This document shows, in pieces, positions 1,667-12,677 of a stretch of 29,895 nucleotides of DNA. The stretch is from IMG/VR virus record IMGVR_UViG_3300022839_000006, positions 1 to 29,895 of that record, one strand, 5' to 3'. The notes under the pieces are model-generated. The model was not told where the DNA came from, made no database searches, and saw only the letters and a program-made list of their open reading frames with translations. The translations under genes and the position numbers were made by a program. The stretch comes from a virus. Within the stretch, counting starts at the first letter, position 1; the number at the start of each line of letters is the position of its first letter.

Positions 1667-1868
1667 AAAATATGGCAACTATGAAGTAGATTTTACAGAA
1701 TTGTTTGTCCGTCTAAAGTTGAGTGAAGGTCATTATGAATATGTCATATTTGCAGACATGTATTCTTCAAGACAAGATGCGAGCCGTGCATGCAGGGCAT
1801 TTCAAATTGGTTTTACAGGCGCACAGGAACATACGTGCAGAAAGTTGCAAAATTTATTATGGACATGA
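1659..1868 (+). CDS. Small hypothetical protein, translationally coupled
   Basis: 69 residues, starting 8 nt inside the end of the previous ORF. Its TGA shares an ATGA with the probable gp33 start at 1865. This chain of overlaps is the main argument that it is real; competing ORFs in this stretch (starts at 1723 and 1790) would overlap it heavily. Mixed charged/aromatic sequence with three cysteines, no recognisable domain. Confidence 0.5.
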   Translation: MVEKYGNYEVDFTELFVRLKLSEGHYEYVIFADMYSSRQDASRACRAFQIGFTGAQEHTCRKLQNLLWT

Positions 1869-2107
1869 CAACCTTAGATACTCAAACACCCGAACGCATT
1901 CACCTCGCGATTGAAAAGCGATTGGCGATTGGAGCGTCCTACATAGACGCTTTGGTGGAATATGCTGAGGAGCACAACCTCGAAATAGAAGCTGTGGCTG
2001 ATATCATCAAGAAGTCACCTACCATCAAGGAAAAGATCAGGGTTGAGGCAAAGAATAGGAGACTACTAAAGAACAATGATACTACTTCAACACACTTCTT
2101 TGAATGA
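1865..2107 (+). CDS. 33: gp33-like late transcription accessory protein
   Basis: 80 residues from the ATG at 1865, chosen because it forms an ATGA overlap with the preceding stop (an in-frame ATG lies at 1859; the frame opens further to 1790). The central block IEKRLAIGASYIDALVEYAEEHNL, continuing to a charged helix near KSPTIKEKIRVEA, matches the conserved core of T4-like gp33. In T4, gp33 bridges RNA polymerase carrying the late sigma factor gp55 to the sliding clamp gp45 for late transcription. Position fits: T4 also has 33 and 59 adjacent and near 32. TATAAATA octamers in this window fit a gp33/gp55 system. The family is short and divergent, hence moderate confidence. Confidence 0.65.
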   Translation: MTTLDTQTPERIHLAIEKRLAIGASYIDALVEYAEEHNLEIEAVADIIKKSPTIKEKIRVEAKNRRLLKNNDTTSTHFFE

Positions 2108-3767: not shown

Positions 3768-4046
3768 ATGACAAAAAAGACAGACTCAGATGTTGAGTTT
3801 GACTTCGGATTTTCGTTCGTTGACGAGAATGTTGAAGCCAAACTCAAAGAACATTCATCACACAAAGAAGAGATGGAAGAATTGCAATCACGTGTAGATC
3901 TTCTATATGATACCATCACTCCGTTTCTTGACAACTTATGCAGAAACCCAAGCAGGTCTACTATTCTTTGGCCTGATAGAGTGGAAAAGATTACTGAATT
4001 TAAGACACGTTTGAAAATGATCACAGAAGGGAAACATAAAAAATGA
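3768..4046 (+). CDS. Small conserved protein between gp32 and uvsX
   Basis: 92 residues. The acidic/aromatic start (SDVEFDFGFSFVDE) is followed by a helical, probably coiled-coil part (AKLKEHSSHKEEMEELQSRV) and the block ILWPDRVEKITEFKTRL. I recall this last block from a small conserved gene at the same place in cyanophage-type T4-like genomes. Function unknown; its place between gp32 and uvsX suggests replication or recombination. Its stop overlaps the uvsX start (ATGA at 4043-4046). Confidence 0.75.
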   Translation: MTKKTDSDVEFDFGFSFVDENVEAKLKEHSSHKEEMEELQSRVDLLYDTITPFLDNLCRNPSRSTILWPDRVEKITEFKTRLKMITEGKHKK

Positions 4047-4951
4047 GTACACTACTTGAAAAGATGCTAAGCACGGGGAGTACCAAATCTTCTGCTGTTC
4101 TATCCTCATCGCCCTTTTTCAATGCAAAGGAAGCAATTCCTACCGACCTCCCAATTCTCAACATTGCATTTAGTGGATCTATTGATGGTGGGCTTCTACC
4201 AGGATTGACTGTTGTTGCAGGTGTATCAAAGAGCTTCAAAACTCTACTGAGCCTCTACTGCATGAAGGCATATTTGGACAAGTACCCTGAGGGCATTGCG
4301 CTACTATATGATTCTGAGTTTGGTATTACACCAGAGTACATTGAGAGCATCGACATCGACATCGATCGCGTTGTTCACATTCCCGTTAAGGATGTGGAGG
4401 AGCTCAAGTTCGATATGGTTCAAAAGTTAGATGCGATTGGCAAAAAAGACAAAGTGTTTATCATGATTGACTCGGTCGGCAACCTTGCATCTAAGAAAGA
4501 GCTAGAAGATGCACAAAACGAAAAGTCTGTCGCGGACATGTCACGTGCCAAGAGCTTGAAGTCGTTGTTTCGTATCATCACGCCATACCTGACAACTAAA
4601 GGAATTCCGTGCCTTGCAGTGAATCACGTATATTCAGAAATCGGCCTATATCCGAAGGCTATTGTTAGTGGTGGGTGTGTAACTGCAGGTACTAATATTC
4701 AGACCCCAACTGGTCTCAAGTCAATCGAGGATTTCAATGTTGGAGAAAGAGTCATTACGCAGTACGGAGACATGGAAGTATCGCATGTCTGGAATCCTGA
4801 TACACTTGATGATGGCAACCCTGAATGTTTTGAAATTGAATTTGAGGATGGTTACATTGTCACGTGTTCTGATGAACATAGGTTCATTGTTGATGGAGAA
4901 TGGGTCGCAGCTAAAGACCTTAAACTTGGTGCCGAATGTCAAGTCGTTTAA
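4043..4951 (+). CDS. uvsX: UvsX recombinase, N-terminal half fused to N-intein
   Basis: 302 residues: UvsX residues 1-211, then a 91-residue N-terminal split intein. UvsX is the RecA-like strand-exchange protein of T4-like phages. The Walker A is the UvsX form AGVSKSFKT (residues 59-67; T4 has GPSKSFKS). YDSEFGITPEYI and the Walker B strand KVFIMIDSVGNLASKKE (about 137-153) match T4 closely. The extein stops at IVSGG, where T4 UvsX continues MGGGTGPMYSA (L2 DNA-binding loop region). From Cys212 the sequence is intein: C1, then a beta-rich segment and the block B motif CSDEHRF. A stop follows, so the product is only functional after trans-splicing with the half at 5927. Confidence 0.93.
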   Translation: MSTLLEKMLSTGSTKSSAVLSSSPFFNAKEAIPTDLPILNIAFSGSIDGGLLPGLTVVAGVSKSFKTLLSLYCMKAYLDKYPEGIALLYDSEFGITPEYIESIDIDIDRVVHIPVKDVEELKFDMVQKLDAIGKKDKVFIMIDSVGNLASKKELEDAQNEKSVADMSRAKSLKSLFRIITPYLTTKGIPCLAVNHVYSEIGLYPKAIVSGGCVTAGTNIQTPTGLKSIEDFNVGERVITQYGDMEVSHVWNPDTLDDGNPECFEIEFEDGYIVTCSDEHRFIVDGEWVAAKDLKLGAECQVV

Positions 4952-4970: not shown

Positions 4971-5026
4971 TAAGAGAGTCCTTAGTTATTATAAATGATG
5001 ATGACAACAATCAAAGGACTCTCTTA
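4971..5026 (+). promoter_or_regulatory. RNA hairpin masking the endonuclease RBS and start
   Basis: A 13-bp perfect inverted repeat: 4971-4983 (TAAGAGAGTCCTT) pairs with 5014-5026 (AAGGACTCTCTTA), with a 30-nt loop. The 3' arm contains the Shine-Dalgarno (AAGGA, 5014-5018) and the A of the AUG at 5026. Read-through mRNA from uvsX would therefore hide the ribosome site. The loop holds TATAAATG (4990-4997), a near-match to the T4 late promoter. Confidence 0.75.
4990..4997 (+). promoter_or_regulatory. Possible late promoter inside the hairpin loop (TATAAATG)
   Basis: Seven of eight bases match TATAAATA. Transcripts starting a few bases downstream (around 5003) would keep the endonuclease RBS and ATG but lose the 5' arm of the masking hairpin. 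Confidence 0.45.
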
Positions 5027-5895
5027 TGAACATCATTTACAAGATCACATTTCAACACCGTCTGGCTCAGAACATTCAGCCTTATTATTACATAGGATCA
5101 AAAACTAATTGTACTGTAGTCGAAGGTGTTATATTAAACTCTAAAGGTAAACCATATTACGGCAGTTCAACATGGAAAAACTATTATGATATAGTAGAAT
5201 CTGACACTTGCACAGTAGAAATATTACAAGAAGGATTCACGGACCACAAAGAATTGTTAACGGCTGAATGTGCTGTACAGGAAGAGTTAGAGGTAGTAGT
5301 ATCACCAGAATATTTTAATAGATCATTAGCATCAGTCAGCAATTTCAATAACCCTCTATATGCTTCATATAAGCATGCAACGACTGGCAAAATGGTTAGA
5401 TTAGAAAGGACTCACGAAAAGGTTCTTGACGGAACTTATGTGGGTGTATCTAAAGGTGTAAAGTTTACTGAAGAACAACGTAATAGTCGTGGCAGATCAG
5501 GCAAAGAAAACAAGTTTTACGGAAAAACCCACACTGATGAAACCAAAGCTAAAATATCTGCTGCTAATACCGGAAAGGTACGTACTGAAGAGTTTAAGCA
5601 AGCTGTTTCGGACCGTTGTAAGGGTGTACCAAAATCTCCTGAACATCGAGCAAAGATTGGACGCCCTGGTTTGATTATGCTTAAAAATATCAATACTTTA
5701 CAAACAATTAGAATATCAATAGATGATGCTCTATTACTAGATAATACTACGTGGCTTAACCCACAAAAGGTTAATACAAAAGTTAAAAAGCCTTGTAAAT
5801 ATTGTGGTCGTCTGTTCACAAAAGGAAATATGAACAGATGGCATGGTGAAAAATGCAAAAGTAAGAGTTTACATCCAGATGATAGTTTATTATAA
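5026..5895 (+). CDS. GIY-YIG homing endonuclease with NUMOD3 repeats
   Basis: 289 residues. The N-terminal GIY-YIG domain shows IIYKITF then YYYIGSKTN, with a candidate catalytic Glu in ELLTAECAVQEE and the usual later Asn (EYFNRS). NUMOD3-type DNA-binding modules lie at about 162-212 (KENKFYGKTHTDETKAKIS; GKVRTEEFKQAVSD; GVPKSPEHRAKIG). A C-terminal zinc-finger-like CKYCGRLF...NRWHGEKC is seen in other phage nucleases. It probably cleaves intein-less uvsX alleles and drives spread of the split intein. It lies free-standing between the halves; the surrounding DNA is more A+T-rich than uvsX. Translation is probably gated by the hairpin at 4971-5026. Confidence 0.88.
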   Translation: MNIIYKITFQHRLAQNIQPYYYIGSKTNCTVVEGVILNSKGKPYYGSSTWKNYYDIVESDTCTVEILQEGFTDHKELLTAECAVQEELEVVVSPEYFNRSLASVSNFNNPLYASYKHATTGKMVRLERTHEKVLDGTYVGVSKGVKFTEEQRNSRGRSGKENKFYGKTHTDETKAKISAANTGKVRTEEFKQAVSDRCKGVPKSPEHRAKIGRPGLIMLKNINTLQTIRISIDDALLLDNTTWLNPQKVNTKVKKPCKYCGRLFTKGNMNRWHGEKCKSKSLHPDDSLL

Positions 5896-5926
5896 TTGAC
5901 CAATCCAACACACAAAAGGAAACAAT

Positions 5927-6499
5927 ATGAAAATACGCTCTATTAGATCAGTAGGTAAGTTACCTGTATATGATCTATCAGTAAACAGTGACAATTATGA
6001 TGAGCAGCAATATGTGCTGGAAAATGGTGTAGTTACTCACAATACGGGAATCATGTATTCAGCAAATACTGTGTTCATCATCAGCAAGTCACAAGAGAAA
6101 GACGGAACTGAGCTTGCAGGATGGAAGTTCACAATCAACATCGAGAAGTCACGGTACGTCAAAGAGAAATCTAAACTACCATTCACTGTAATGTATGAGG
6201 ATGGTATACAAAAGTGGACTGCAATCTTCGACATTGCGATGGAATCTGGCTTCATCACGAAACCGAAGGTTGGTTGGTACAATCTTGTTGATCCTGAGAC
6301 AGGCGAAGTAGACGAGAAGAACTATCGTCAGGCAGATGTGGTTACTAACAATGCTTTTTTTGAAAAACTTGTTAAAAACGTGGATTTCAAAGAGTTTGTA
6401 GAGCGCAAGTTCAAACTGTCTGCAACTCAAAAGAAGTCGGACGACAGCCACGGAGAAGATGATGCAGATGTGGAAATGGACATGGACACATACGAATAA
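5927..6499 (+). CDS. uvsX: UvsX recombinase, C-intein plus C-terminal half
   Basis: 190 residues, RBS AAAGGAAA 7 nt before the ATG. Residues 1-39 are the C-intein ending VVTHN; residues 40-190 are the UvsX C-half starting TGIMYSANTVFIISKS. It continues DGTELAGWKFTINIEKSRYVKEKSKLPF, matching T4 UvsX (TGPMYSADTVFIIGKR ... NVEKSRTVKEKSKF). The acidic tail (DDSHGEDDADVEMDMDTYE) is typical of UvsX. It needs the N-half at 4043 for any recombinase activity; the +1 Thr at 6044 is the splice acceptor. A hairpin terminator follows. Confidence 0.93.
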   Translation: MKIRSIRSVGKLPVYDLSVNSDNYDEQQYVLENGVVTHNTGIMYSANTVFIISKSQEKDGTELAGWKFTINIEKSRYVKEKSKLPFTVMYEDGIQKWTAIFDIAMESGFITKPKVGWYNLVDPETGEVDEKNYRQADVVTNNAFFEKLVKNVDFKEFVERKFKLSATQKKSDDSHGEDDADVEMDMDTYE

Positions 6500-6570: not shown

Positions 6571-7956
6571 ATGATAGAGCAAACTATTCTTGCTAATCTA
6601 CTTTACAATGGGGAGTTTTGTCGCAAAGTCATCCCATACATCAAAGAAGAGTATTTTGATGATGTTGCTACCAAAAAGATATTTGCATCTTTCTCTGAAT
6701 ATGTCAGTACATACAAAGAACCACCTTCAATTGAGGCTCTCAAGATTACGCTGGAGGCGCGTAAAGATCTCAACGAGGATTTGTTTAAAGCTGTTAATAC
6801 AGCCGTCGACGAGTTGAAGATTGATGCAGCAACTAATCAAGATTGGCTTTTAGGCGAGACAGAGAAGTTCTGCCAAGACAAGGATCTGTTCAATTCAATT
6901 AGAAAAGCAATTTTGATTCTTGATGGGCAAGACAAAGAGTTTGACAAGGGTGCTATTCCTAAGCTGTTGTCTGATTCGCTTGGAATCAACTTTGATAGTC
7001 ACATTGGGCATGATTATATTGAAGATGCAGACAGTCGTTATGATTTCTATCATCGCACAGAAGAGCGAATTCCTTTTGACATTGATCTGTTGAACCAAAT
7101 CACTAAGGGTGGACTGCCCCGCAAATCCTTGACGTTGATTTTAGCGACCACAGGTGGTGGCAAAAGTTTGATGAAATGTCACATGGCTGCAGCTTCTCTT
7201 ATGCATGCCAAGAACGTCCTCTACATAACAGCTGAGATGGCTGAGGAGAGAATTGCAGAACGCATTGATGCTAATCTATTAGACGTCACAATTGATCAGC
7301 TACGAGAAATGCCCAGAGAAATGTTCAATACAAGAATTGCCAAGGTTAAAAGCAGAACGCCCGGAAAACTTGTAGTCAAAGAATACCCTACAGGGTCTGC
7401 TCACGCAGGACACTTTAGACATCTTCTCAATGAGCTGAAACTAAAGAAGGGGTTTGTTCCTGATATTATCTTCATTGATTATCTCAACATCTGTGCATCT
7501 TCTCGTGTGAAGGGTGCAGCAGCCGCAAACTCATACACACTGGTCAAGTCAATCGCTGAGGAAATACGTGGTTTAGCAATGGAGTTTGATTGTCCTATTG
7601 TATCGTCAAGTCAGTACAACCGCGGAGCATACGATTCGAGCGACGTTGACCTCACAAACACGTCTGAATGTATCTACGTTAAAGAAACAGTTACCATGAG
7701 TGACGGAACGTCGAGATGCATATCTGACCTGAAACCAGGCGACAAAATTAAAAGCGAAGACAGTACAAAGCTAGTCACGATGGTCCACCATCCTAAGATG
7801 AAGGATTGTGTCAAGATTAAAATGAACAGCGGCAAGTCAATCACTGTCAGTAAGGATCACGTATTTCCATCTATGTCAAACGACGGTGTTGTGTCGCGAC
7901 TATCTGTCAGTCAGGGACTAAATGTAGGTTACAGTCTTAATGTGGTAGAGGATTAA
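6571..7956 (+). CDS. 41: gp41 replicative helicase, N-terminal part fused to N-intein
   Basis: 461 residues: gp41 residues 1-366 plus a 95-residue N-intein. gp41 is the DnaB-type hexameric 5'-3' fork helicase. The N-terminal helical domain is about residues 1-140; then FDIDLLNQITKGGLPRKSLTLILATTGGGKSL contains Walker A (about 193-200). VLYITAEMAEERIAERI, DIIFIDYLNIC (Walker B) and IVSSSQYNRGAYDSSDVDLTNTSE follow. T4 gp41 continues TSES at this point, but here E366 is followed by Cys1 of an intein (CIYVKETVTMSDGTSRC...), with block B VSKDHVFP and then a stop. The rest is encoded from 7960, only 3 nt later. Activity requires trans-splicing. Confidence 0.93.
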   Translation: MIEQTILANLLYNGEFCRKVIPYIKEEYFDDVATKKIFASFSEYVSTYKEPPSIEALKITLEARKDLNEDLFKAVNTAVDELKIDAATNQDWLLGETEKFCQDKDLFNSIRKAILILDGQDKEFDKGAIPKLLSDSLGINFDSHIGHDYIEDADSRYDFYHRTEERIPFDIDLLNQITKGGLPRKSLTLILATTGGGKSLMKCHMAAASLMHAKNVLYITAEMAEERIAERIDANLLDVTIDQLREMPREMFNTRIAKVKSRTPGKLVVKEYPTGSAHAGHFRHLLNELKLKKGFVPDIIFIDYLNICASSRVKGAAAANSYTLVKSIAEEIRGLAMEFDCPIVSSSQYNRGAYDSSDVDLTNTSECIYVKETVTMSDGTSRCISDLKPGDKIKSEDSTKLVTMVHHPKMKDCVKIKMNSGKSITVSKDHVFPSMSNDGVVSRLSVSQGLNVGYSLNVVED

Positions 7957-8238
7957 CATATGAATGACAGCCAAATGGAAAAGATGCAGAACGATTGTTT
8001 TGTTAAAGCTCATCATATGATCGCCAATAACATGACCAAAGAGATGGACTTGTTTGACCTGACAGATCTGCTGATAAGCATGGAGATGGAGAAGGAGGAG
8101 AAGCAACAGGTTGAAGACAGTAAAATTGATTATAATGATACCATTGTAGAAATTGAGAATGTCGGCATGGTGGAAACGGTAGATATATCTGTAACAGGTA
8201 GTCAATTGTTCTACTGCAACAACATCTTGACAAAAAAC
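7669..8238 (+). mobile_element. Split intein in gp41 helicase, no endonuclease
   Basis: N-intein 7669-7953 (95 aa, Cys1, block B SKDH) and C-intein 7960-8238 (93 aa, ending LFYCNNILTKN), +1 Ser. The last part (VETVDISVTGSQLFYCNNIL) strongly resembles the known gp41 split inteins, whose C-ends read like LFYANDILTHN. Two oddities: the penultimate His is Lys here, and about 55 residues precede the usual start of the C-intein. The halves are separated by only 3 nt, with no nuclease gene. Confidence 0.87.
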
Positions 8239-8574
8239 AGCATGGGGATTGCTCACACTGCAGATTGTATCCTCGGCTTGATCTCTTCAGAAGAATTGGA
8301 GGCGATGGGCCAAATCATGATCAAGCAGTTAAAAAACAGATGGGGCGATCTTGGATTCTATAGACGGTTTGTTGTTGGAATAGACAGATCAAAAATGAAG
8401 CTGTATGACTTGGAAGAAGGTGCGCAGAGCGATGTTCAAAACGAGACAAGGAAAAAACAACAACCACGAGAGGATGAGGATAAGCCTACGTTCGATACCT
8501 CTAACTTCGGACAAGAGGAATCATTTAGAATGAAACCTTCTTGGAAGAAAACTAAGGCAGACGGATTCATATGA
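7960..8574 (+). CDS. 41: gp41 replicative helicase, C-intein plus C-terminal part
   Basis: 204 residues; RBS AGAGGA lies inside the end of the upstream ORF. Residues 1-93 are intein: a Met/Glu-rich helical extension (1 to about 55), then the canonical C-intein ending TKN. Residues 94-204 are the helicase C-end: SMGIAHTADCILGLISSEELEAMGQ, then KNRWGDLGFYRRFVVGIDRSKMKLYDLEE, matching the conserved end of gp41 (TSES.G....AD...KNR). The tail (QPREDEDKPTFDTSNF...) is hydrophilic. Joined extein length 366+111 = 477, against 475 in T4 gp41. An alternative start at M41 or M43 would give a normal-size C-intein. Confidence 0.91.
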   Translation: MNDSQMEKMQNDCFVKAHHMIANNMTKEMDLFDLTDLLISMEMEKEEKQQVEDSKIDYNDTIVEIENVGMVETVDISVTGSQLFYCNNILTKNSMGIAHTADCILGLISSEELEAMGQIMIKQLKNRWGDLGFYRRFVVGIDRSKMKLYDLEEGAQSDVQNETRKKQQPREDEDKPTFDTSNFGQEESFRMKPSWKKTKADGFI

Positions 8575-11427: not shown

Positions 11428-11465
11428 TCGCGTCCGAATGGCCACTGTATTCTTGGAGAGTGAAC

Positions 11466-12677
11466 ATGAACTACGAATCGGGACTTGATGTTGCCTTGAA
11501 CCTTCTACGTTCAGAGGGACGTTACAGGACGTTTGTTGATATTGAGCGCAAAAGGGGTGCATATCCTACCGCTACGTGGTACGATATAGATGGAGAACGT
11601 CGAGACATTGTTGTGTGGTGTGGCAACGATTATCTCGGCATGGGTCAACATCCTGTAGTTTTAGAGGCAATGGCTGTTGCACTTGAGGCAACAGGAGCGG
11701 GTTCAGGCGGCACGAGAAACATATCAGGAACCACAGTATACCACGGCAGACTTGAAGCGGAACTGTCTGATTTGCATCAGACAGAGGCTGCTCTTGTATT
11801 CACCTCAGCATACAATGCCAACGATGCTACATTGTCAACGTTGCCCAAGCTCTTTCCAGGCCTCATCATATATTCCGATGCGCTGAATCACGCTTCGATG
11901 ATTGAGGGCATGAGACGTAATGGTGGCGCAAAGCGTATCTTTAGGCACAACGATGTTGACCATCTACGTGATCTACTTGCTGCTGACGATCCATCTGCTC
12001 CAAAGTTAATTGCATTCGAATCTATATACTCGATGGATGGTGATTTTGCACCGATAGAAAGAATATGTGATCTTGCGGATGAATTTAACGCTCTTACGTA
12101 CATTGACGAGGTACATGCTGTCGGCATGTACGGGCCACGTGGAGCAGGCGTATGTGAGCGTGACGGTCTGATGGGTAGAATTGATATTATCAACGGTACA
12201 TTGGCCAAAGCCTACGGCGTGGCAGGTGGCTACATCGCTGGATCAGCCAAGATGTGCGACGCAATACGATCTTATGCGCCAGGATTTATATTTACGTCCT
12301 CTATGCCTCCTGCCGTTGCTGCTGGGGCAGCAGCATCAGTACGTTATTTGAAAACCGCGCAACATATGCGCGACACGCACCTACTTCGTGTCAACATGTT
12401 GAAAGGACACTTTAAAAGGATTGGACTACCTTTGATTGATAACGGCAGTCACATTGTTCCTGTACATGTAGGCAACCCCATCCACTGTAAGGCATTGTCT
12501 GACATGTTACTAGAACAACATGGAATTTATGTGCAGCCTATCAACTTTCCTACGGTCCCACGTGGAACTGAGAGACTTCGGTTCACGCCTTCTCCTGTTC
12601 ACAGCATTGGCCAAATAGACCATTTGGTTCAGGCGATGGACGAACTTTGGCATAGGTGCACACTCGGCCGCTCTTAG
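11466..12677 (+). CDS. hemA: 5-aminolevulinate synthase (ALAS)
   Basis: 403 residues from the ATG at 11466 (GGAGA 6 nt upstream; a GTG lies at 11460). ALAS condenses glycine and succinyl-CoA to 5-aminolevulinate using PLP, the first step of tetrapyrrole synthesis by the C4 pathway. Alpha-oxoamine synthase hallmarks: WCGNDYLGM (51-59), [12 protein letters not shown] (79-90), [17 protein letters not shown] (212-228) and GTLAKAYG with PLP lysine K248, the number known for Rhodobacter capsulatus ALAS. The C-terminus is complete ([13 protein letters not shown]). The glycine/ALAS motifs distinguish it from KBL and BioF relatives, though those are the alternative. The C4 pathway implies an alphaproteobacterial host. 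Likely an auxiliary metabolic gene boosting haem or other tetrapyrroles. Confidence 0.92.

What the first reader, a model, noticed from the sequence alone, without database searches (positions are those of the whole stretch)
4971..5026. Hairpin masks the endonuclease RBS and start, with a late-promoter-like octamer in its loop
A 13-bp perfect stem buries AAGGA and the A of the AUG; the 30-nt loop contains TATAAATG. Transcripts reading through from uvsX would be untranslatable for the nuclease, while transcripts starting in the loop would lack the 5' arm and be translated. T4 I-TevI is controlled by just such a combination of RBS hairpin and internal late promoter. Finding the same logic in a split intein suggests convergent timing control that protects the host gene's expression from the nuclease.
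Basis: partly seen in the sequence, partly recalled or inferred. Interest (0 to 1): 0.75.

Follow-up and report, generated by a model that had tools for sequence, protein, structure and literature searches.

The report
Late-timing RNA switch for intein nuclease
In a T4-like virus of bacteria, a gene for a DNA-cutting enzyme that sits between the two halves of a split recombination gene carries an RNA hairpin that should hide its start signal on early messages, with a late-promoter-like site in the hairpin's loop; the same arrangement recurs across dozens of related viruses, so it looks like a general timing switch for these selfish genes.

Summary
A 13-bp perfect stem (4971-4983 / 5014-5026, plus a G·U pair) buries the AAGGA and the A of the AUG of a GIY-YIG/NUMOD3 homing endonuclease that lies between the halves of a split UvsX intein; the 30-nt loop holds TATAAATG. 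Predicted cost of opening the start site falls from 13.8 to 3.1 kcal/mol if transcription starts at 5003. The phage encodes gp33 and gp55 homologues, and TATAAATA is about 28-fold enriched just upstream of its genes. The window's own octamer is one base off consensus and is not conserved in its one close relative. The decisive evidence is comparative: of 44 distinct leaders of nucleases between split UvsX intein halves, 39 are more complementary to their start site than about 95% of shuffles, and 28 carry exact TATAAATA (1.6 expected; 0/32 and 0/37 at the neighbouring uvsX starts). Split loci that lost the nuclease lost the octamer. gp41 split inteins with a nuclease show it too, and so do cultured phages (an imperfect octamer in E. 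coli K-12 phage ELT1). It works like the I-TevI/mobE switch. I found no report of it for split inteins. 'Protects the host gene' is not supported.

The parts
1790..2107 (+). gp33-like late-transcription co-activator (supporting machinery)
   Evidence: Pfam PF16805 'Phage late-transcription coactivator' E 1.4e-15; phrog_254 E 2e-14
4043..4951 (+). UvsX N-terminal half fused to split-intein N fragment (IntN from about 4676)
   Evidence: PF00154 RecA 8.6e-9, Hint domains; 80 IntN relatives
4971..4983 (+). 5' arm of the RBS hairpin
   Evidence: sequence, fold, unchanged in L001
4990..4997 (+). late-promoter-like octamer TATAAATG, one mismatch (-6) from TATAAATA, in the loop; predicted start about 5003
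   Evidence: 36 nt upstream of the AUG; exact TATAAATA in 28/44 related leaders
5014..5026 (+). 3' arm of the RBS hairpin, containing SD AAGGA 5014-5018 and the A of the AUG
5026..5895 (+). GIY-YIG + NUMOD3 homing endonuclease, 289 aa, between the split-intein halves
   Evidence: phrog_7504 7.7e-24 and phrog_314 9.8e-22 'homing endonuclease'; NUMOD3 5.3e-10; profile matches the I-TevI DNA-binding domain 1i3j E 5.8e-5; invariant Y5, YIG 22-24, E81, N98
5927..6499 (+). split-intein C fragment fused to the UvsX C-terminal half, with its own accessible start
   Evidence: PF21134 T4_UVSX_C 8.5e-10; opening cost 0.5 kcal/mol

Best explanation
The hairpin is a timing switch for the homing endonuclease. 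Early or middle transcripts that read through uvsX-IntN carry the 5' arm, fold, and hide the SD and AUG, so the nuclease is not made while both UvsX halves are. Late RNA polymerase (gp55, gp33, clamp) starts at a TATAAATA-type octamer inside the loop or 5' arm; that RNA lacks the 5' arm and is translated. Shown here: the structure, its recurrence over diverse nuclease leaders with changed but still complementary stems, the enrichment and placement of the octamer, and the presence of late-transcription genes. Inferred: that the start is used in vivo, that translation changes as predicted, and that the purpose is to confine cutting to late times when repair and recombination are active. For this window the hairpin half is very likely; the promoter half rests on a one-mismatch octamer.
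For: Hairpin: z -4.75; opening cost 13.8 falling to 3.1 kcal/mol with a start at 5003. Family: 44 distinct leaders, median cost 13.0 against 2.4 (IntC starts) and 4.2 (UvsX-N starts), P about 1e-13 and 1e-14; exact TATAAATA 28/44 against 0/32 and 0/37; all 28 drop by more than 3 kcal/mol when started at +1. Shuffles: 1.56 leaders with TATAAATA expected; 39/44 leaders within about the top 5% for complementarity. Octamer placement relieves at least 60% of the cost in 21/28 against 11.3 expected for uniform placement. Compensatory U-A/C-G with U.G intermediates; G-C/A-U between ELT1 and RPN226. Two nuclease types, GIY-YIG and HNH, and a second host gene, gp41. Split loci without a full nuclease: no TATAAATA in any of 17, and the hairpin only in one recent deletion, L044. 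Phage TATAAATA sites: 15 of 34 lie 22-50 nt before an ORF, 0.54 expected. gp55 homologue, 40% identity, E 4.5e-20; gp33. Known precedent: PMC2988022, PMC3014915.
Against: The window's octamer is TATAAATG; of 6 such sites in the phage only this one precedes an ORF. L001 has TATGAATA, so the octamer is not conserved in the nearest relative, though that nuclease is deleted. The window and L001 stems are identical, so there is no covariation within the lineage itself. Exceptions: Thanatos-1 and VmeM-32 have no leader; in SEA1 the hairpin no longer covers the start; one IMG/VR locus, L066, was excluded because its ORF lies far downstream. Leaders are related: 11 nuclease clusters at 50% identity, 27 leaders in one. 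No RNA data.
Confidence: 0.8

Rival explanations
1. Hairpin without a working promoter: in this phage the ancestral TATAAATA has decayed to TATAAATG, so the hairpin simply keeps the nuclease nearly silent (leaky low translation), or the cassette is starting to decay.
For: The octamer differs from consensus at -6, and L001 differs at another position (-10), as if each had lost an ancestral TATAAATA separately; L001's nuclease is internally deleted. TATAAATG shows no other promoter-like placement in the genome.
Against: The nuclease ORF is intact with conserved catalytic residues. Octamer spacing and the predicted relief are typical. T4 itself uses single-deviation late promoters: of 50 listed sites 32 are perfect, 9 have A at -13, and most others deviate at one position (PMC2988020).
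Confidence: 0.16
2. The hairpin acts mainly on the transcript: an RNA processing site or attenuator between the uvsX halves that sets the ratio of N and C halves.
For: It lies between the two halves and is very stable.
Against: No U-tract, and it is not picked up as a terminator-like site. The helix systematically covers SD/AUG in diverse leaders. Split loci without a nuclease lack it. No Rfam match.
Confidence: 0.03
3. The inverted repeat is a DNA site (operator for the nuclease, as for I-TevI, or a recombination site) and not an RNA structure.
For: I-TevI represses its own late promoter through a homing-site look-alike (PMC2988022).
Against: G.U pairs in 26/44 leaders, and U.G forms at pairs of the conserved helix. 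No homing-site look-alike in the leader: best 14/20, reached in 28/200 shuffles. Stems differ in sequence between loci.
Confidence: 0.02
4. Chance inverted repeat in AT-rich DNA.
For: None beyond the high AT content of the leader.
Against: 0/2000 and 0/200 shuffles; recurrence in the family.
Confidence: 0.005

Closest known systems
T4 I-TevI (td intron) RBS hairpin with internal late promoter; also I-TevII, I-TevIII, segB (PMC2988022, PMC3014915)
   Same: Hairpin on long early/middle transcripts hides SD/AUG; a TATAAATA-type late promoter lies so that late RNA lacks the 5' arm; GIY-YIG + NUMOD3-like nuclease; profile match to the I-TevI DNA-binding domain.
   Different: The host element is a split intein (protein trans-splicing), not a group I intron, so protection of RNA splicing cannot be the reason. 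No operator-like homing-site copy found. The window's octamer is imperfect.
Aeh1 mobE in nrdA (Gibb and Edgell 2007, 2009, as summarised in PMC2988022)
   Same: Nuclease gene splits a nucleotide/DNA metabolism gene into two ORFs and has an RBS-sequestering hairpin with an associated promoter.
   Different: nrdA halves are reported to work as separate peptides; here the halves carry IntN and IntC for ligation. The window nuclease is GIY-YIG; the most numerous nucleases in related UvsX loci are HNH, like mobE.
Split-intein 'fractured genes' with a freestanding nuclease (Dassa et al. 2009; paper not held, cited through PMC10448857 and from own knowledge)
   Same: uvsX and gp41 split intein, nuclease ORF between the halves.
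   Different: A regulatory hairpin/late-promoter leader is, as far as I could search, not described for them.
T4 e, soc and 49 late genes with RBS hairpins (PMC3014915)
   Same: Same switch: long transcripts folded, late transcripts open.
   Different: Phage structural, lysis or recombination genes, not mobile nucleases.

Membership tests
I-TevI/mobE-type RBS hairpin with internal late promoter | Stable helix covering SD and/or AUG on read-through transcripts | tested here: met
   13-bp stem, opening cost 13.8 kcal/mol
I-TevI/mobE-type RBS hairpin with internal late promoter | Late promoter placed so that late RNA lacks the 5' arm | tested here: inconclusive
   Window: TATAAATG, one mismatch, correct place. 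Family: exact TATAAATA in 28/44
I-TevI/mobE-type RBS hairpin with internal late promoter | Phage has gp55/gp33 late transcription and TATAAATA promoters | tested here: met
   gp55 homologue, gp33 homologue, 15/34 TATAAATA sites upstream of ORFs
I-TevI/mobE-type RBS hairpin with internal late promoter | Mapped late 5' end and timed translation | not testable with these tools
   needs RNA and protein from infected cells
I-TevI/mobE-type RBS hairpin with internal late promoter | Helix kept by compensatory change in relatives | tested here: met
   Two leader groups, small samples: U-A/C-G, 95.7% paired against 27-44% when slid; one compensated pair. Window lineage itself invariant
I-TevI operator/autorepression | Homing-site look-alike overlapping the late promoter | tested here: not met
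   14/20, 28/200 shuffles as good
GIY-YIG homing endonuclease | GIY-YIG catalytic motif residues | tested here: met
   Y5, YIG 22-24, E81, N98 invariant; phrog_7504/314. Fold match to I-TevI catalytic domain only weak: prob 0.51, E 0.93
Split-intein fractured gene | Host gene split by IntN and IntC ORFs with a nuclease between | tested here: met

The most novel reading that the evidence does not exclude
A hairpin-plus-late-promoter leader is a general, repeatedly rebuilt hallmark of nuclease genes in phage split inteins (uvsX and gp41; GIY-YIG and HNH types). Because protein trans-splicing does not depend on RNA folding, its persistence there would show that late timing of homing nucleases is selected for a reason other than protecting intron splicing, such as matching cutting to recombination-dependent replication or limiting early damage.
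Probability: 0.7. Interest if true: 0.68.

Novelty: new variant of a known kind. Interest (0 to 1): 0.6.

Why it matters
Why T4-type homing nucleases are held back until late is an open question. The best experimental answer (I-TevI) is protection of intron splicing, which cannot apply to a split intein. Finding the same switch across dozens of split-intein nuclease leaders separates the two ideas. E. coli K-12 phages such as ELT1 carry a version, so the question can be tested with standard phage genetics.

Tried and rejected
Operator/homing-site look-alike in the leader (as in I-TevI): not found. Terminator or known RNA family: none. The exact stem sequence searched in all viral contigs gave 5 contigs, one of them the known relative; the others were not examined, and I expect them to be chance at that scale. 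gp41 IntN of the window as a query reached only its close relative and one distant locus, so a published gp41-1 IntN sequence was used. Structure model of the nuclease: low confidence beyond residue 90, Foldseek weak. Covariation within the window lineage: not testable, stems identical. Stem conservation window/L001: 0/28 stem against 5/30 loop changes, suggestive only. Dassa 2009 and Gibb and Edgell 2009 are not held. No match in plasmids.

Full report
WHAT IS THERE. The window is the first 29,895 bases of a 208,230-base IMG/VR virus record, a T4-like phage: gp32-like ssDNA-binding protein, helicase loader, gp33-like co-activator, uvsX, gp41. uvsX is split: UvsX-N plus IntN (4043-4951), a 289-aa nuclease ORF (5026-5895), and IntC plus UvsX-C (5927-6499). 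The nuclease is assigned to homing-endonuclease families (phrog_7504, phrog_314), carries NUMOD3, keeps GIY-YIG catalytic residues in an alignment of seven relatives, and its profile matches the I-TevI DNA-binding domain in the PDB.

THE OBSERVATION. The arms 4971-4983 and 5014-5026 pair perfectly over 13 bp, with a further G·U pair; the 3' arm contains AAGGA and the A of the AUG; the loop is 30 nt and holds TATAAATG at 4990-4997. The fold is far better than shuffles (z -4.75), and a 13-bp leader/start helix never arose in 2000 shuffles. Opening the start region costs 13.8 kcal/mol in a 90-nt upstream context (16.8-20.4 for other long transcripts) and 3.1 if the RNA starts at 5003, the +1 predicted from the T4 rule that the octamer occupies -13 to -6 (PMC2988020). 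Among 223 starts in the phage the nuclease ranks 7th.

IS THE OCTAMER A PROMOTER? In this phage exact TATAAATA occurs 34 times against 12 for the reversed control pattern, and 15 lie 22-50 nt upstream of an ORF against 0.54 expected. gp55 and gp33 homologues are present. So T4-type late transcription is well supported. The window's octamer, however, is TATAAATG; five other copies of that variant in the phage are not upstream of ORFs, and the only close relative (L001, IMGVR 3300022837_000097) has TATGAATA. Each is one step from TATAAATA at a different position, compatible with an ancestral consensus. L001's nuclease has an internal deletion, so decay there is expected. In T4, 32 of 50 listed late promoters are perfect, nine have A at -13, and most others have single deviations (PMC2988020), so TATAAATG is plausible but unproven.

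RELATIVES. IntN searches of IMG/VR gave 27 and then 80 loci. Sixty-two of the loci examined have a nuclease-size ORF between IntN and IntC, with 38 distinct leaders. One (L066) was excluded because its ORF is far downstream; seven leaders from cultured phages were added, giving 44. Median opening cost is 13.0 kcal/mol, against 2.4 for the IntC starts and 4.2 for the UvsX-N starts of the same loci (P about 1e-13 and 1e-14). Exact TATAAATA occurs in 28/44 leaders and in 0/32 and 0/37 of the control leaders. In all 28, starting at +1 lowers the opening cost by more than 3 kcal/mol (median 12.7 to 4.0). Dinucleotide shuffles of the leaders would give TATAAATA in 1.6 of 44, and for 39 of 44 leaders at most 5 of 100 shuffles are as complementary to the start region. 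TATAAATA is the commonest 8-mer in the leaders. Uniform placement of the octamer would relieve at least 60% of the cost in 11.3 of 28 leaders; observed 21. Counting T4's common A(-13) variant, which occurs in L033, L055, ELT1 and RPN226, 32 of 44 have a known promoter form.

RNA, NOT DNA. Stem sequences differ widely between leaders. In the short-hairpin group one pair switches U-A to C-G in 3 of 7 sequences and another has U·G forms. ELT1 and RPN226, two E. coli phages, differ by a G-C/A-U double change. Both samples are small. G·U pairs occur in the start-covering helix of 26 of 44 leaders. Two arrangements are seen: long stems with the octamer in the loop (as here), and short stems where the octamer overlaps the 5' arm, SD sits in the loop and AUG in the stem (L085-L109).

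NATURAL LOSS AND GENERALITY. Seventeen split uvsX loci have no nuclease or only remnants of its 3' end. None has TATAAATA between the halves, their IntC starts are accessible (0.3-6.3 kcal/mol), and only L044 (the same contig as L001, a recent internal deletion) keeps the hairpin. So the leader belongs to the nuclease cassette and is not needed by split uvsX. A second split-intein family, gp41-1, has GIY-YIG/NUMOD3-type nucleases whose leaders carry exact TATAAATA within an inverted repeat (L140, L150, L179); there the repeat ends before the AUG and is imperfect in some, so that case is weaker. Cultured phages include ELT1 (host E. coli K-12 MG1655), RPN226, Lion_ER11, Pm5461, PspYZU05 and TG1, the last with exact TATAAATA in the loop. 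Exceptions are Thanatos-1 and VmeM-32 (the nuclease overlaps the end of IntN) and SEA1 (hairpin displaced); EniLVp02 has a strong hairpin upstream that does not cover its start.

INTERPRETATION. The best explanation is the T4 late-gene switch known from I-TevI, I-TevII, I-TevIII, segB and Aeh1 mobE (PMC2988022, PMC3014915): silent on read-through transcripts, translated from late transcripts. What is new, as far as the searchable literature shows, is its presence, widely, in split-intein cassettes. For I-TevI, early translation disturbs intron folding; in a split intein splicing is of proteins. The timing rationale in PMC2988022 (cutting when repair, genome copies and recombination-dependent replication are available; limiting ectopic breaks) fits better, and the present set makes that testable.

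LIMITS. The leaders are not independent (11 nuclease clusters at 50% identity, 27 leaders in one). Starts were chosen by an SD heuristic. Energies are predictions at 37 C, and the host is unknown. +1 is assumed from T4. No transcript data exist here.

Noticed in passing
window 11460-12677 +: A 405-aa gene that by its sequence looks like a 5-aminolevulinate synthase; Pfam shows only a PLP aminotransferase (PF00155, 5.6e-69). Shemin-pathway genes in aquatic phages have been reported (PMC11480375).
   Followed up: partly
window 6571-8574 +: gp41 helicase is also split by an intein, with only 3 nt between the IntN stop and the next start and no nuclease.
   Followed up: partly
window 5868-5896 +: Sigma70-like promoter TTTACA-17-TATAAT (11/12) inside the 3' end of the nuclease gene, just upstream of IntC; it could give the C half its own transcript. 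Degraded in L001.
   Followed up: no
L010:16546 (-), same phage: 98-aa GIY-YIG-like ORF with AATAAATA 28 nt upstream and a high opening cost (12.9 kcal/mol): a possible second case of the switch in this genome.
   Followed up: no
L130 (Thanatos-1), L133 (VmeM-32): Split uvsX nucleases that overlap the end of IntN and so have no leader; they may depend on translational coupling, opposite to the hairpin type.
   Followed up: no
L049, L050: UvsX intein that is not split (IntN and IntC in one frame), a candidate for the ancestral or re-fused state.
   Followed up: no
L068 leader: Very long (111 nt) leader with a second internal hairpin GAAGGTCGCGAGACGGCAATCTCCACCTTC between the late octamer and the SD.
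   Followed up: no
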